This document shows, piece by piece, positions 4,774 to 53,203 of a DNA stretch of 64,000 nt. The notes under the pieces were generated by a model that was not told the DNA's origin, did not search any database, and saw only the letters and a program-made list of their open reading frames with translations. The position numbers were made by a program, and so were the translations under genes. The DNA comes from a virus: the IMG/VR virus record IMGVR_UViG_3300042991_000131, positions 1 through 64,000 of that record; one strand, given 5' to 3'. Numbering within the stretch: the stretch's first letter is position 1; every line of letters starts with the position of its first letter.

Positions 4774-4890
4774 GGGGAGCACTTTCTGACAAGAAACGTT
4801 TTCTGGTTATAATTTTACGGGCCTTGCCGTCTAGTAGAGTGTAGCAAGGCTGCGAGCTTGATTAACAATCCTTGACAGAAAGTGCTCCCC
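4774..4890. repeat. inverted GGGGAGCACTTTCTG arms flanking the small-terminase leader
   Basis: 4774-4790 and 4874-4890 are inverted 17-mers with one mismatch, 83 bp apart, the second ending directly at the small-terminase ATG. Further copies of the core lie at 1209-1222, 1244-1256 and, inverted, 1922-1931. Confidence 0.8.
4786..4813 (+). promoter_or_regulatory. probable promoter of the virion operon
   Basis: CTGACA (4786-4791) and TATAAT (4808-4813) with a 16-nt spacer, about 80 bp before the small terminase gene; the -35 hexamer overlaps the left inverted-repeat arm. Confidence 0.6.
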
Positions 4891-19942: not shown

Positions 19943-19974
19943 TAGAGATATTCAATCAACCCTGGACTTAAGAC

Positions 19975-20517
19975 ATGCAAGCTTCACTCATCCGAGTAAA
20001 GGGTCTTAAGCCCAGGGTTGATGTATTTAGTAAAAAGCTCCACGAAAATATGACTCGACTGTGGAAGGACGCCACCAAGGAGTTCATTGTCGAGGCAATA
20101 AAACTTGTGCATATTGATACAGGAATGTCGCGTAGTTCACTGCTACCACTAGGGCGACTCGTTCGCATGGTTACTGCGATTAAAGCATACGGATCACGTA
20201 CACCCGGTAAGGGCGGACCTGTCCGCAAGAGTCGTACAGGCTATACTGACCTAGCAGGTAATTACGATCCTACTATTAATCGTACTGCTGCATTAGGTGA
20301 GAAACTTGGTGAGCGAGCCTTTCGACTTAACTTTGGCTCTCCTGCTAGACCGGTATTCCATTTTGAATTCAACATTAAAGTATACCAATATGCACTGCAT
20401 GAAGAGGATTGGGAGTCTATTGAGCGTGGTCAAGAAGCCTTCCTGGCCTATCTAAAAAACAACGCTATCAACTATGTGCCAAAACTGGCCGAGTGGATAC
20501 TCCCGGAGACGACCTAA
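19975..20517 (+). CDS. minor tail protein, HK97 gp10-like
   Basis: 180 residues ending one base before the tape measure ATG. It has a central HIDTGMSRSSL segment like the DTG..R.S motif of the HK97 gp10 family of tail-completion proteins, although these normally lie upstream of the tube gene. A basic Gly-rich loop (about residues 74-92) follows. Moderate support. Confidence 0.5.
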   Translation: MQASLIRVKGLKPRVDVFSKKLHENMTRLWKDATKEFIVEAIKLVHIDTGMSRSSLLPLGRLVRMVTAIKAYGSRTPGKGGPVRKSRTGYTDLAGNYDPTINRTAALGEKLGERAFRLNFGSPARPVFHFEFNIKVYQYALHEEDWESIERGQEAFLAYLKNNAINYVPKLAEWILPETT

Positions 20518-43126: not shown

Positions 43127-43157
43127 TTGATTTGATTACAACGTGTAATCAAATCAA
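43127..43157. promoter_or_regulatory. GATTTGATTA inverted repeat
   Basis: Perfect 14-bp inverted repeat (43127-43140 with 43144-43157, 3-nt loop) just upstream of the primase-helicase ATG. Other copies of GATTTGATTA lie at 49115, 49189, 62504 and 62701. Confidence 0.75.
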
Positions 43158-43533: not shown

Positions 43534-43656
43534 CATTGCTACAACTCACGCTTGACAAAAATTGTCAGACTGTTTTATAGGTTCAAGTGGACCCATGCAC
43601 CAGGGCCGAGCCGTCAAACTGGACCCTAGAACACTGCCAGGATCGACGCTAGCCCT

Positions 43657-43741
43657 GTTTCCTGTTGATCCTAGCGACTATTCCGGCGGAATGGTGCTAG
43701 GTTGTCGTCCGCTATATTAGTCGCTAGGATCGACGGGAAAC
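43657..43741. repeat. 23-bp imperfect inverted repeat
   Basis: 43657-43679 pairs with 43719-43741 with two mismatches, enclosing a 39-nt segment with a small palindrome (ATTCCGGCGGAAT). Possible origin or protein-binding structure. Confidence 0.75.
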
Positions 43742-43807
43742 CCGGTTATATTTTACGACCCTTTGCCGTGTAGGCTATTGACAGACACTCGAAAAGACGC
43801 TAATTTC

Positions 43808-43943
43808 GAGTTACGAGTAACTCATAAATCAACCGATTATTGAGGTACTCATAATTCGTTAATCATTCCGATTGACGAATTGAACTGCTAATCATCCTTA
43901 CCATGTGGATGATTAGTTAACCTATTCTAGTGCTGCGCAGCAC
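43808..43943 (+). promoter_or_regulatory. four-hairpin leader of the ParB-like gene
   Basis: Consecutive inverted repeats at 43808-43823 (GAGTTAC/GTAACTC), 43853-43881 (12 bp, one G-T), 43888-43916 (10 bp) and 43930-43943 (GTGCTGCGCAGCAC), followed by AAGGAG and the GTG start. May be RNA structure, or DNA sites for the ParB-like product. Confidence 0.65.
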
Positions 43944-43956
43944 AAGGAGAACACAC

Positions 43957-44916
43957 GTGGGTGATATCAAGAAGATTAGCTTAGCCCTCATTCGTGAGAA
44001 CGAGGTTGCTCTGCGTACCGTCAACCGTGAGTCCGAGGATTACCTGGGCCTGGTTGAGTCGATCCGCCAGAAGGGCTTCATGGGCGCGATTACCGTCCGT
44101 GCGAAGGTCGATGCCGAGACGAAGGAGCATTTCTACGAGCTAATCGACGGCCTCCATCGCTTCAACGCGTCGAAGGACGCGGGGCTGTCGGAGATTAACG
44201 TCGATGTGGTGGATCTGAATGAGGACCAGGTTCTCGAAGCTCAGATCATGACGAACATCCACAAGGTGGAGACCCGTCCGGTCGAGTATTCGCAGCAGCT
44301 CAAGCGCATCCTGACCCGCAATCCGCTGATGACCGAGAGCGAGCTGGCTGTCAAGCTCGGCAAGTCGCCGGTCTGGATTAAGGAGCGTCTGGGCCTGACC
44401 AAGATCACCAACAGCGAGATTACTGCCCTCATCAACGATGGCAAGATCAAGCTGGCCAACGCCTACGCTCTGGCCAAGCTGCCCGAGACCGAGCAGCAGG
44501 ACTTCGTTGAGCGTGCGATGACCCTCAGCCCGGACGAGTTCGTTCCGGCTGTCCAGGCTCGCGTCAAGGAGATTAACGAAGCCAAGCGTCAGGGCAAGGA
44601 AGCCGGCGCCGCCGAGTTCGTCCCGACCCCGCACCTCCAGAAGCTCAGCGACCTCAAGGCGCTGCTGGAAAACCGTACCGCTGCTGCCAAGCTCGTCGCG
44701 GGCGTGTCGGATCCGGTCGAGGCTGCCATCATCGCGATTAAGTGGGCGCTCCACCTTGACGCCGACAGCGTTGCCGCTGCCAAGGCCAAGGATGATGCCC
44801 GCCGCGCCGAGCAGGCCGAGGCGAAGAAGAAGCGCGATCAGGCGAAGCTGGAGAAGGCTGCCGCCGCCGCGAAGGATGCCGCTGAGAAGGCCGCCGCTGC
44901 CGCGAAGCAGGGCTAA
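43957..44916 (+). CDS. ParB/Spo0J-like DNA-binding protein
   Basis: 320 residues from GTG 43957, with a full AAGGAG seven bases upstream (an open extension to 43930 has none). ParB core signatures: ELIDGLHRFNASKDAGL, then a helix-turn-helix region with ESELAVKLGKSPVWIKERLG. The C-terminal ~80 residues are a Lys/Ala/Glu coiled coil. GC-rich codon use. No ParA nearby. It may bind its own palindromic leader or the control regions. Confidence 0.8.
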   Translation: MGDIKKISLALIRENEVALRTVNRESEDYLGLVESIRQKGFMGAITVRAKVDAETKEHFYELIDGLHRFNASKDAGLSEINVDVVDLNEDQVLEAQIMTNIHKVETRPVEYSQQLKRILTRNPLMTESELAVKLGKSPVWIKERLGLTKITNSEITALINDGKIKLANAYALAKLPETEQQDFVERAMTLSPDEFVPAVQARVKEINEAKRQGKEAGAAEFVPTPHLQKLSDLKALLENRTAAAKLVAGVSDPVEAAIIAIKWALHLDADSVAAAKAKDDARRAEQAEAKKKRDQAKLEKAAAAAKDAAEKAAAAAKQG

Positions 44917-44930
44917 TCATTTGAGGAGCG

Positions 44931-44950
44931 CGCTCCTCAAAGTCCTACGG
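44931..44950 (+). terminator. palindrome just after the ParB-like gene
   Basis: 20-bp perfect palindrome (TTGAGGAGCG/CGCTCCTCAA) 15 bp after the stop. No T run; may terminate, or mark the 5' end of the structured RNA that follows. Confidence 0.55.
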
Positions 44951-45300
44951 GATTAAGTCCTGTAGTTGAATAAGTTTCCTGGCCCGGCTTATTAAAGCAG
45001 AGCTTCGCCGACCGCGTGGATTAGATACCCACAAATACCGGCTTCTTAGCGGGCAACAGAAGCGCAACTATTAATCAAGTGAGATCGTCGCACTAAGCTG
45101 CGTAGACCCACTTACAATCACAACAAATAGCGCTATTGGTGCGTACTGCACTTGACGGCGGGTAAATAGCCGCGCTCTTTTGGTGGTAGATGATTAACAG
45201 ATAGAGAGATATGCCGTATCAGTGAGCTAGGTGTGGGCATACCCGTTAGAGGAATCTCACTGCAACTATCTGTTAATCATCTGCCACCAAAAGACCTTGG
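44944..45300 (+). ncRNA. candidate large structured noncoding RNA
   Basis: No coding frame, yet dense in helices readable by eye: 44945-44965 (8-bp hairpin), 44969-44974 with 44988-44993, closing helix 45002-45006 with 45059-45063 around hairpin 45016-45032, palindrome 45126-45137, and a 28-bp helix with one mismatch, 45177-45204 with 45266-45293. Inside the last, TATGCC (45210-45215) can pair with GGCATA (45236-45241) while CAGTGAG (45220-45226) pairs with CTCACTG (45256-45262), a pseudoknot. Size and a tRNA gene downstream recall ornate phage RNAs such as GOLLD and ROOL, but identity with them is not claimed. Exact ends unknown. Confidence 0.65.
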
Positions 45301-45302
45301 TT

Positions 45303-45345
45303 AATGTCCTGATTAGCTAATCATTCAACACGAACCGAGGACATT
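45303..45345 (+). promoter_or_regulatory. hairpin that can hide the next gene's ribosome-binding site
   Basis: AATGTCCT (45303-45310) pairs with AGGACATT (45338-45345), enclosing the palindrome TGATTAGCTAATCA (45310-45323). The GAGGA ribosome-binding site (45337-45341) for the ATG at 45350 lies in the stem. Confidence 0.6.
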
Positions 45346-45349
45346 CAAC

Positions 45350-45997
45350 ATGGGCGAACTCATTAATCTTGCCGGAGCCGGCGCAGTTCAAAAGTACGAC
45401 GATAAGGCTTTCGAGGCTTCGGCTTCGAGCGGCAATTATCTTCCTCGTCTGCAACTGATGACCAGCAACAGTGAGAAGTGCAAGAGTGGCGAATTTCCGA
45501 TTAACAACTATGCTCTAGTCGTTGGAGAAATTTACAACGATCTTGGCAAGGAGACTGATGTTCTTCTGATTGCTTGGCGCCCGAAGGCCATCGAGATGGG
45601 TGACGCTGTGATTAGCGTCTACAATCACGAGGACGATGAGTTCAAGCGGATCGCGGCGAAGAGCGAGCAGCCTAATTCGGGTTGCATGTTCGGACCTGAG
45701 TTCCTGGTGTGGGTGCCTTCCAAGAAGAAGTTTGCAACCTTCTTCCTGGGTAGCAAGTCTGGTCGCAAGGAAGCCCCTGCGCTCAAGGCTCTGCTCCAGC
45801 AGGCTGCCACGCTGAAGTCGAAGAAGATTAGCACCCCTCAGTTCACCTGGTTTGCTGCTCAGGCCGTTCCGTGCAACACGCCGTTCGATATCCCTGCAAT
45901 GGACGATATCAAGGTGGAATTGGAGAAGTTCAACAATCCGCCAGCTAAGACAGCCGAGAAGGCGCCTGACGCTGGCACCGAAGGTCGCGCCCGATAA
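45350..45997 (+). CDS. conserved phage protein, possible replication accessory
   Basis: 215 residues. Alpha/beta protein with segments such as LPRLQLMTSNSEKCK and FPINNYALVVG that I associate with uncharacterised phage proteins encoded near replication genes; a single-stranded-DNA-binding role is a guess. The C-terminal tail is Pro/Ala/Lys-rich and likely disordered. GC-rich codon use suggests high expression. Its ribosome-binding site is inside a hairpin. Confidence 0.55.
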   Translation: MGELINLAGAGAVQKYDDKAFEASASSGNYLPRLQLMTSNSEKCKSGEFPINNYALVVGEIYNDLGKETDVLLIAWRPKAIEMGDAVISVYNHEDDEFKRIAAKSEQPNSGCMFGPEFLVWVPSKKKFATFFLGSKSGRKEAPALKALLQQAATLKSKKISTPQFTWFAAQAVPCNTPFDIPAMDDIKVELEKFNNPPAKTAEKAPDAGTEGRAR

Positions 45998-46005
45998 CGG
46001 AATGG

Positions 46006-46039
46006 AGGCCAGGATATCGAAAGGTATCCTGGCCTTTTT
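46006..46039 (+). terminator. intrinsic terminator
   Basis: 11-bp perfect stem (46006-46016 with 46025-46035), 8-nt loop, then TTTTT; directly precedes the tRNA gene. Confidence 0.85.
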
Positions 46040-46044
46040 CGTTT

Positions 46045-46120
46045 GCTGTTGTAGCTCAGTCGGTAGAGCACCGCTTTTGTAAAGCGGGGGTCGCGTGTTC
46101 AAGTCACGCCGACAGCACCA
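46045..46120 (+). tRNA. tRNA-Thr (anticodon TGT)
   Basis: 76 nt including encoded CCA. Acceptor stem GCTGTTG/CGACAGC (one G-T pair), D arm, anticodon stem CCGCT/AGCGG with loop TTTGTAA giving TGT, 5-nt variable loop and T arm GCGTG/CACGC. Reads ACA codons, which are common in the AT-richer virion genes. Confidence 0.95.
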
Positions 46121-46139
46121 ATCATTCCACGGAGCCAAG

Positions 46140-46619
46140 ATGCTTACGCCAGTAGCTTGTACAATTGTTGATTGGCAAACATATATTGCCATTCACGAGA
46201 AGCTTGGTATACCTGCGCCTACACGGGCGTTAGATGGTATTGGATTAGATCCTAAGTCACCCGCTAGTTTCCTTGCCACTGTTGGTGGCCTGGATCCTAC
46301 GAGTAACTTGCGTAGGGCTTATGTTAATAAGCATACCGATCTAATCCACATGATATATGTTATCGAATCGGAAGATGATCTACTGGCTAATCTGCAACAG
46401 ACTAGACTCGTGTGTGTTAATCATGGTGAAGTCACATTTCTAAGTGGTACTTTAACACAGTTCATGGATGCGATTATCTCTTGTTCAGTACGCAACAATC
46501 CGTTACTAAGACTGATGAACGCGCTGTTCGTATATCTCGATAGAGGCGGCTTCAAAGAGTGCTTCTACGATTACACACGCGAGTCAGACAACTCAACATT
46601 CACACTCAAACATAGATAA
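46140..46619 (+). CDS. 159-residue hypothetical protein
   Basis: ATG 46140 with GGAG eight bases upstream; an open extension to 46095 would start inside the tRNA. Alpha/beta protein with no recognised motif. Lies between tRNA and the SNF2-type helicase. Confidence 0.6.
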   Translation: MLTPVACTIVDWQTYIAIHEKLGIPAPTRALDGIGLDPKSPASFLATVGGLDPTSNLRRAYVNKHTDLIHMIYVIESEDDLLANLQQTRLVCVNHGEVTFLSGTLTQFMDAIISCSVRNNPLLRLMNALFVYLDRGGFKECFYDYTRESDNSTFTLKHR

Positions 46620-52223: not shown

Positions 52224-52377
52224 TCGTTCACATGGTCGTGACCGAATTAGCCGGTCGCGTAACTTGGAGGCTATTTGCAAGCCTCCTGACCATGAATGGC
52301 TGTGAAAGGATTAACACTCGTTGTGTTAGTCTGAGTCTTAGCGGGCAACACAGCCATTCATAGTCAGGAGAAACAAC
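52224..52377 (+). ncRNA. structured leader upstream of the methyltransferase
   Basis: 154 nt without a gene, foldable into two compact domains. Domain 1: CATGGTC (52231-52237) with GACCATG (52288-52294) enclosing GGAGGCT/AGCCTCC (52266-52286). Domain 2: 13-bp helix (52292-52304 with 52349-52361) enclosing TTAACAC/GTGTTAG. It contains a 15-nt motif (52336-52350) identical to 45044-45058. May be a cis-acting leader controlling the methyltransferase or an independent RNA. Confidence 0.65.
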
Positions 52378-53184
52378 GTGGGAGGATTAAGTGAGCTGGC
52401 ACTATTTGCAGGGGCAGGTTTCGGCATCCTGGGAGGCAAGCTCCTTGGATGGCGCACCCGATGCGCTGTTGAAATTGATCCCATACGTCGAAGGATGCTC
52501 TTTGAGCGCCAGCGCGATGGGATGCTCGAAAGATTCCCGATATGGGATGATGTACGATCTTTTGATGGCAAACAATGGCAAGGTGCCATTGATGTTGTCA
52601 CCGGAGGATTTCCTTGCCAAGACATTAGTGGCATGGGCAGCCGCGAAGGATTATTGGGAGATAAATCGGGTCTGTGGAGCCACATGGCAAGGATTGTCGG
52701 CGAAGTTAGACCCACTTACGTGTTCGTGGAAAATGTCAGGAATCTCACTCGACAAGGACTCGGCGTCGTGCTTGGCGATTTGGCCACTCTCGGGTATGAT
52801 GCAAGGTGGTGTTGCCTGGGAGCAGACGAGGTCGGTGCTAATCACAAAAGGGACCGTATCTGGATTCTGGCCTACTCCTACTGTGCAAGGGGATGCCAGA
52901 CGCGAGACAATCAGAAAGCCAGGTCAGCTATCGCATACTGGCACGACGCTCCTCGATGCGGTGATGCTGTATCCTACGCCAACGAGCAGCGATTACAGAC
53001 GTTGCGACCCAAACGAGCGCCGGGGACAATTGACTTCAATGTTCAATGGTGGGCTTCTGAACCCAGATTGGGTAGAGTGGTTGCAGGGTGTACCAATCGG
53101 TTGGACCGGATTAAAGCCATTGGGAATGGACAAGTACCAGCAGTGGTACAGGCTGCATGGACTATCCTTGGAGGAATCACTTAA
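52378..53184 (+). CDS. C5-cytosine DNA methyltransferase
   Basis: 268 residues from GTG with AGGAG seven bases upstream. Motifs in order: I ALFAGAGFG, IV TGGFPCQDIS with the catalytic Cys, VI FVENV, VIII RDRIWIL, and X IKAIGNGQVP at the C-terminus. Full length for the compact phage class. Overlaps an almost equally long frame (52391-53203) that looks like another phage protein family. Confidence 0.9.
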   Translation: MGGLSELALFAGAGFGILGGKLLGWRTRCAVEIDPIRRRMLFERQRDGMLERFPIWDDVRSFDGKQWQGAIDVVTGGFPCQDISGMGSREGLLGDKSGLWSHMARIVGEVRPTYVFVENVRNLTRQGLGVVLGDLATLGYDARWCCLGADEVGANHKRDRIWILAYSYCARGCQTRDNQKARSAIAYWHDAPRCGDAVSYANEQRLQTLRPKRAPGTIDFNVQWWASEPRLGRVVAGCTNRLDRIKAIGNGQVPAVVQAAWTILGGIT

Positions 53185-53203
53185 GATAAAGGCAATCAAA
53201 TGA
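52391..53203 (+). CDS. MSW...WPTPT family protein encoded in an alternative frame of the methyltransferase
   Basis: 270 residues in the +1 frame relative to the methyltransferase, over nearly its whole length. GTG start with GGAGG five bases upstream; its stop forms ATGA with the next gene (53200), the coupling used all over this phage. Signatures of a common phage/prophage family of unknown function are present in order: MSWHYLQ, SLDGAPDALL, TWQGLSAKLDP, IWPLSGMM, GFWPTPT, YPTPTSSD and LNPDWVEWL...GWTGLKP. It could also be a conserved by-product of methyltransferase coding, but length, RBS and coupling favour translation. Confidence 0.65.
   Translation: MSWHYLQGQVSASWEASSLDGAPDALLKLIPYVEGCSLSASAMGCSKDSRYGMMYDLLMANNGKVPLMLSPEDFLAKTLVAWAAAKDYWEINRVCGATWQGLSAKLDPLTCSWKMSGISLDKDSASCLAIWPLSGMMQGGVAWEQTRSVLITKGTVSGFWPTPTVQGDARRETIRKPGQLSHTGTTLLDAVMLYPTPTSSDYRRCDPNERRGQLTSMFNGGLLNPDWVEWLQGVPIGWTGLKPLGMDKYQQWYRLHGLSLEESLKIKAIK

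What the first reader, a model, noticed from the sequence alone, without database searches (positions are those of the whole stretch)
44944..45293. Large ornate noncoding RNA candidate with a pseudoknot
Seen: about 350 nt without a gene in a genome where genes overlap, containing many local hairpins, a 28-bp long-range helix with one mismatch (45177-45204 with 45266-45293), and inside it crossing pairings TATGCC/GGCATA and CAGTGAG/CTCACTG that form a pseudoknot. A tRNA gene lies 0.75 kb downstream. Known: phages carry large structured RNAs (for example GOLLD, ROOL) often near tRNAs. Inference: this may be a new class or a diverged member of one.
Basis: partly seen in the sequence, partly recalled or inferred. 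Interest (0 to 1): 0.85.

Follow-up and report, generated by a model that had tools for sequence, protein, structure and literature searches.

The report
Phage intercistronic RNA stalk with pseudoknot
Between two replication-type genes of an uncultured phage lies a gene-free stretch whose transcript would fold into a 29-base-pair stem capped by a pseudoknot; it is most likely a structured control or processing signal in the messenger RNA, not a member of the giant phage RNAs GOLLD or ROOL.

Summary
The sequence facts hold. The helix is even slightly longer than reported: 45176-45204 with 45266-45294, 29 pairs, the "mismatch" being a U·G wobble on the + strand. The crossing stems inside its 61-nt loop arise in 3 of 3000 shuffles. 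The 5' half (44917-45172) is not clearly better folded than shuffles (z -1.9), so "ornate" rests on one stalk.

No Rfam family matches. The gap lies between a parB-like gene and gene X (predicted OB-fold, weakly resembling phiC31 RDF and T4 gp32). parB-X synteny holds in the 47 relatives found, and their gap is a slot that takes tRNAs, small ORFs and hairpins. The window has four more long intercistronic stalks near gene starts; the one upstream of parB corresponds in position to a stalk in relatives that does covary (22 double-change cells in four sequences).

Best reading: a structured intercistronic leader or processing element of the parB-X transcript (RNase III-type stalk, possibly a protein-bound pseudoknot). 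A free-standing RNA class is possible but unsupported. Function is inferred, not shown.

The parts
43930..44916 (+). parB-like gene upstream (start may be GTG at 43957, which has a Shine-Dalgarno)
   Evidence: Pfam ParB_N and HTH_ParB; PHROG ParB-like partition protein; SD AAGGAG before GTG 43957 read
44917..45349 (+). 433-nt intercistronic gap containing the finding
   Evidence: no ORF of note; fold z -6.8
44920..44941 (.). perfect 22-bp palindrome right after the parB stop (hairpin or protein site; no T-run)
44945..44965 (+). local hairpin CTACGGGATTAAGTCCTGTAG
   Evidence: MFE; the 5' half as a whole is not above shuffles
45083..45176 (+). core conserved with L137: hairpins GTCGCA/TGCGTAGAC, GGTGC/GCACT and GCGG/CCGC with loop GTAAATAG
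   Evidence: SW z 5.4, 0 of 200 shuffles; alignments A3 and A5; CM R1 finds only window and L137 in full
45176..45204 (+). 5' arm of the 29-bp stalk
45210..45241 (+). pseudoknot stem S1, UAUGCC 45210-45215 / GGCAUA 45236-45241
   Evidence: chance 3/3000
45220..45262 (+). pseudoknot stem S2, CAGUGAG 45220-45226 / CUCACUG 45256-45262, crossing S1
   Evidence: chance 3/3000
45266..45294 (+). 3' arm of the 29-bp stalk
45295..45340 (+). possible Shine-Dalgarno-hiding helix CCUUGGUU/AACCGAGG; competes with pairing 45069-45079/45296-45306
   Evidence: MFE; not better than shuffles (94 of 300)
45350..45997 (+). gene X, 215 aa, predicted OB-fold protein
   Evidence: AF2 pLDDT 83.6; VIA-align Z 7.9 to phiC31 RDF, 5.4 to T4 gp32 core; no Pfam/PHROG family

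Best explanation
A structured intercistronic RNA element in the + strand transcript that carries parB and gene X. Its 29-bp stalk is an expected substrate for host RNase III, which would separate parB and X messages or reshape the leader of X. The pseudoknotted cap and the core hairpins upstream of X would be the parts a protein could recognise (X itself, an OB-fold nucleic-acid binder, is one candidate) or would protect the end of the processed message. Shown: the gap, helix and crossing stems exist above chance; a core is shared with one relative just upstream of X; the phage has other such stalks near gene starts. Inferred: transcription through the gap, RNase III cleavage, protein recognition, effect on X.
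For: Same-strand gene order parB-gap-X-tRNA with no promoter-like or terminator-like pattern in the gap. Helix and crossing stems above chance. The one non-Watson-Crick pair is U-G on the + strand. Core conserved with L137 directly upstream of X, with hairpin GGTGC/GCACT against GACGT/ACGTC differing at three pairs on both sides when the loop indel is allowed for. A 24-nt piece of that core precedes a start codon in an unrelated contig, L216. Four further long stalks of the window lie near starts: 43657-43741, 4774-4890, 19955-20022, 52283-52370. In relatives the stalk upstream of parB keeps pairing through change: 231 of 256 cells paired, 22 double-change cells, slid controls 58-126 paired and 1-5 double; its non-WC cells are G-U 20 against A-C 6 on the parB strand.
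Against: No homologue carries the 29-bp stalk or pseudoknot; L137 lacks both. Many relatives have only 15-50 nt between parB and X, so the family does not need a structured leader. SD hiding is not above shuffles. The covarying stalk is in another place (upstream of parB) and its window counterpart was not aligned with it. No transcript data.
Confidence: 0.45

Rival explanations
1. A free-standing small RNA of a new class: the parB-X gap is an RNA-gene slot, and the window's phage placed a structured RNA there that is cut out and acts in trans or as a particle component.
For: In relatives the same gap holds tRNA genes (L156, L165, L203, L205; L159 with an intron) and, in L159 and L205, a 95-nt RNA not in Rfam with 4 both-sides-changed pairs. 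Related contigs carry tmRNAs nearby.
Against: Only a core is shared with one relative; no promoter or terminator pattern; 5' half folds no better than shuffles.
Confidence: 0.2
2. Autogenous translational operator like that of T4 gene 32: X, a single-strand-binding-type protein, binds the leader pseudoknot and represses its own translation.
For: X model aligns over 143 residues with T4 gp32 core (Z 5.4), 136 with RB69 gp32 (Z 5.0), 146 with phiC31 RDF (Z 7.9); a pseudoknot lies in its leader as in T4 gene 32 (PMC535899).
Against: Z under 8 may be only a common fold. The pseudoknot ends 88 nt before the AUG inside a long stalk, and the stretch after it is folded, whereas T4's is unstructured with UUAAA repeats. 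Most relatives lack a leader pseudoknot.
Confidence: 0.12
3. A DNA element: inverted repeat acting as origin, partition or protein-binding site near parB.
For: parB-like neighbour; perfect palindrome at 44920-44941; divergent primase/parB region with giant inverted repeats in relatives.
Against: Excess of G-U over A-C non-WC pairs in the upstream stalks favours RNA; pseudoknot stems have no obvious DNA role; no GC-skew turn at the gap.
Confidence: 0.13
4. Recent inverted duplication or remnant cargo without function.
For: Slot is variable between relatives; L137 has only the 3'-arm-like CCACCAAG sequence; a new inverted repeat would be near perfect.
Against: Pseudoknot in the loop above chance; the window carries several such stalks.
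Confidence: 0.1

Closest known systems
Intercistronic RNase III processing hairpins of phages (T7 R1-R5, lambda N leader; own knowledge)
   Same: long double-stranded stem between genes of one operon, near the next gene's start
   Different: 29 uninterrupted pairs and a pseudoknotted 61-nt cap; cleavage not tested
T4/RB69 gene 32 translational operator (PMC535899)
   Same: pseudoknot in the leader of a gene whose product is modelled as OB-fold and weakly resembles gp32
   Different: pseudoknot sits on a long stalk 88 nt from the AUG; no unstructured UUAAA stretch; not conserved in relatives
GOLLD and ROOL RNAs (PMC12286853)
   Same: phage-borne, structured, tRNA in the neighbourhood
   Different: no Rfam match; the whole gap (433 nt) is about half the length of a typical GOLLD; no multibranched conserved core

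Membership tests
GOLLD / ROOL | match to the curated covariance model | tested here: not met
   cmscan of the window at gathering score and of 44500-46500 at E up to 5: no match
GOLLD / ROOL | length (GOLLD often over 800 nt) | tested here: not met
   whole gap 433 nt; length from PMC12286853
GOLLD / ROOL | near tRNA genes in phage | tested here: met
   one tRNA-Thr 0.75 kb downstream; weak criterion
T4 gene 32-type operator | leader pseudoknot upstream of the gene | tested here: met
   sequence can form it, above chance; formation itself not probed
T4 gene 32-type operator | unstructured >40-nt stretch with UUAAA/UAAA repeats between pseudoknot and AUG | tested here: not met
   45295-45349 folds and lacks the repeats
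T4 gene 32-type operator | downstream gene encodes a gp32-like SSB | tested here: inconclusive
   VIA-align Z 5.4, 143 aligned, but Z below 8
RNase III processing site | over 20 bp of near-perfect dsRNA in an operon transcript | tested here: met
   29 pairs, same-strand genes on both sides; co-transcription itself not shown
RNase III processing site | cleavage by RNase III | not testable with these tools
   needs an experiment
Intrinsic terminator | hairpin followed by a T-run | tested here: not met
   only terminator-like site found is 46004-46037
tRNA / tmRNA | cloverleaf or tmRNA fold | tested here: not met
   ARAGORN with introns allowed finds none in the gap

The most novel reading that the evidence does not exclude
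This phage lineage uses a class of 'stalk plus folded cap' RNAs (20-70 bp stalk, 30-110 nt cap, sometimes pseudoknotted) around parB and at other gene starts, as a family of control or structural RNAs not yet described; the finding is one member.
Probability: 0.2. Interest if true: 0.65.

Novelty: new member of a known kind. Interest (0 to 1): 0.38.

Why it matters
It adds a clear, testable structured RNA to a phage group known only from metagenomes, and points to the parB region as a place where undescribed phage RNAs sit. If the stalk class is real it would be a new handle on how such phages time replication genes.

Tried and rejected
GOLLD, ROOL and every other Rfam family; the weak MIR8742 match (30.5 bits, cut-off 130) is just any long hairpin. 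tRNA, tmRNA or intron remnant. Terminator. Riboswitch-like exclusion between 45069-45079/45296-45306 and SD hiding: the long pairing has zero probability in the ensemble and SD hiding is not above shuffles. Mobile hairpin: arm 16-mer has three unrelated viral hits; no match in cultured phages or, for 45060-45310, plasmids. Pattern scans for the GCGG/CCGC hairpin were mostly coding hits; one scan was mis-specified by one base, missed L137 itself and taught nothing. G-rich motif GGYGGG in leaders: not clearly enriched. A universal leader pseudoknot across the relatives' stalks: not significant for most. A likeness of GGATTAGATACCC (45018-45030) to the 16S rRNA 790 loop was noted from memory only and judged likely chance.

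Full report
What is there. The window is part of a 76.8-kb virus record whose terminase, portal, polymerase, thymidylate synthase and primase genes mark a tailed phage. Gene X has no relative among 50,697 phage records, and the gap matches none of them. The finding lies in a 433-nt gap between a parB-like gene and gene X, both on the + strand.

Check of the observation. The crossing stems are real, with chance 3 in 3000 shuffled loops and 10 in 3000 random window pieces. The gap as a whole folds at z -6.8 (-6.6 on the other strand), but without the stalk the 5' 256 nt give only z -1.9. So the claim of an ornate fold rests on the stalk and its cap. Elsewhere the window has stronger folds, for example 43550-43929 (z -9.7).

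Relatives. Forty-seven viral contigs encode X and all keep parB directly before it. The gap varies from 15 to about 550 nt (one locus gives 1182, probably a truncated parB reading) and holds tRNAs, a tRNA with an intron, small ORFs or hairpins. Only L137 (X 65% identical) has detectable sequence likeness to the window gap: 0 of 200 shuffles reach the score, z 5.4. The likeness covers about 45083-45176. A covariance model of that core finds in full only the window and L137, plus a 24-nt hairpin piece in L216, where it again precedes a start codon. The stalk and pseudoknot are absent from L137.

A wider pattern. The window has five spaced stalks of 20-29 bp: 4774-4890, 19955-20022, 43657-43741, 45176-45294 and 52283-52370. 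Four overlap or lie within about 60 nt of a start codon; 43657-43741 lies about 190-215 nt before the parB start. In relatives the divergent region before parB carries stalks of 12-72 bp, often with loops of about 92-108 nt. For L149, L150, L153 and L141 the arms align; 231 of 256 cells pair, with 22 double-change cells at 18 of 64 positions, against 58-126 paired and 1-5 double when slid (the arms were aligned by hand from the apical end, which favours pairing). Non-Watson-Crick cells there are 20 G·U and 6 A·C on the parB strand with scoring blind to that difference (p 0.009, not corrected for relatedness). This supports RNA-level selection on stalks in this lineage, but at a different site from the finding.

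Protein X. No Pfam or PHROG family, no significant PDB sequence match. The AlphaFold model (pLDDT 83.6) aligns best with phiC31 RDF (Z 7.9), and over most of its length with T4 and RB69 gp32 (Z 5.4, 5.0). An OB-fold nucleic-acid binder is likely; its function is not shown. T4 gp32 represses its own message through a leader pseudoknot (PMC535899), which makes autoregulation an attractive but weak rival here.

Interpretation. The simplest account is a structured intercistronic leader or processing element of the parB-X transcript. A free RNA gene cannot be excluded, since relatives put RNA genes in the same slot, including in L159 and L205 a 95-nt structured RNA absent from Rfam with four compensatory pairs. 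GOLLD and ROOL membership fails the tests made.

Noticed in passing
L159:4857-4950 and L205:3830-3919: A 95-nt RNA after a tRNA in the parB-X gap, shared by two contigs, 4 of 20 predicted pairs changed on both sides, no Rfam match found for the L159 copy at E up to 3 (a chance miRNA match lies elsewhere in that stretch): candidate new structured RNA.
   Followed up: partly
L149:3540-3766, L150:3620-3849, L153:3530-3762, L141:3524-3757; also L140, L143, L156, L173; window 43657-43741: Giant covarying stalk with a ~100-nt loop in the divergent primase/parB region of relatives (loop 37 nt in the window).
   Followed up: partly
window 1-64000: GTTTA/TAAAC is almost absent (1 seen, 55.6 expected) while GATTA/TAATC is in excess (398 vs 255); looks like avoidance of a host restriction or defence site.
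   Followed up: no
window 52370-53203: DNA methyltransferase gene seems to start at GTG 52378 in another frame than the 52391-53203 ORF: a frameshift, real or sequencing error. Its likely Shine-Dalgarno lies in the 3' arm of the stalk 52283-52370.
   Followed up: no
L147:6213-6603 (same as L010:4213-4603) and L166:2689-3052 (-): tmRNA genes in related phage contigs.
   Followed up: no
L159:4680-4851: tRNA-Ser(GGA) with a 95-nt insertion in the anticodon loop, too short for a usual group I intron.
   Followed up: no
window 43127-43157 and relatives upstream of parB: Repeated GATTTGATT/AATCAAATC sites near both ends of the primase/parB region, possible ParB-like or repressor binding sites.
   Followed up: no
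L216:2784-2807 (-): 24-nt hairpin TCTGACGGCGGGACAAGTAGCCGC identical to L137, upstream of a small ORF in a RecT-containing contig.
   Followed up: partly
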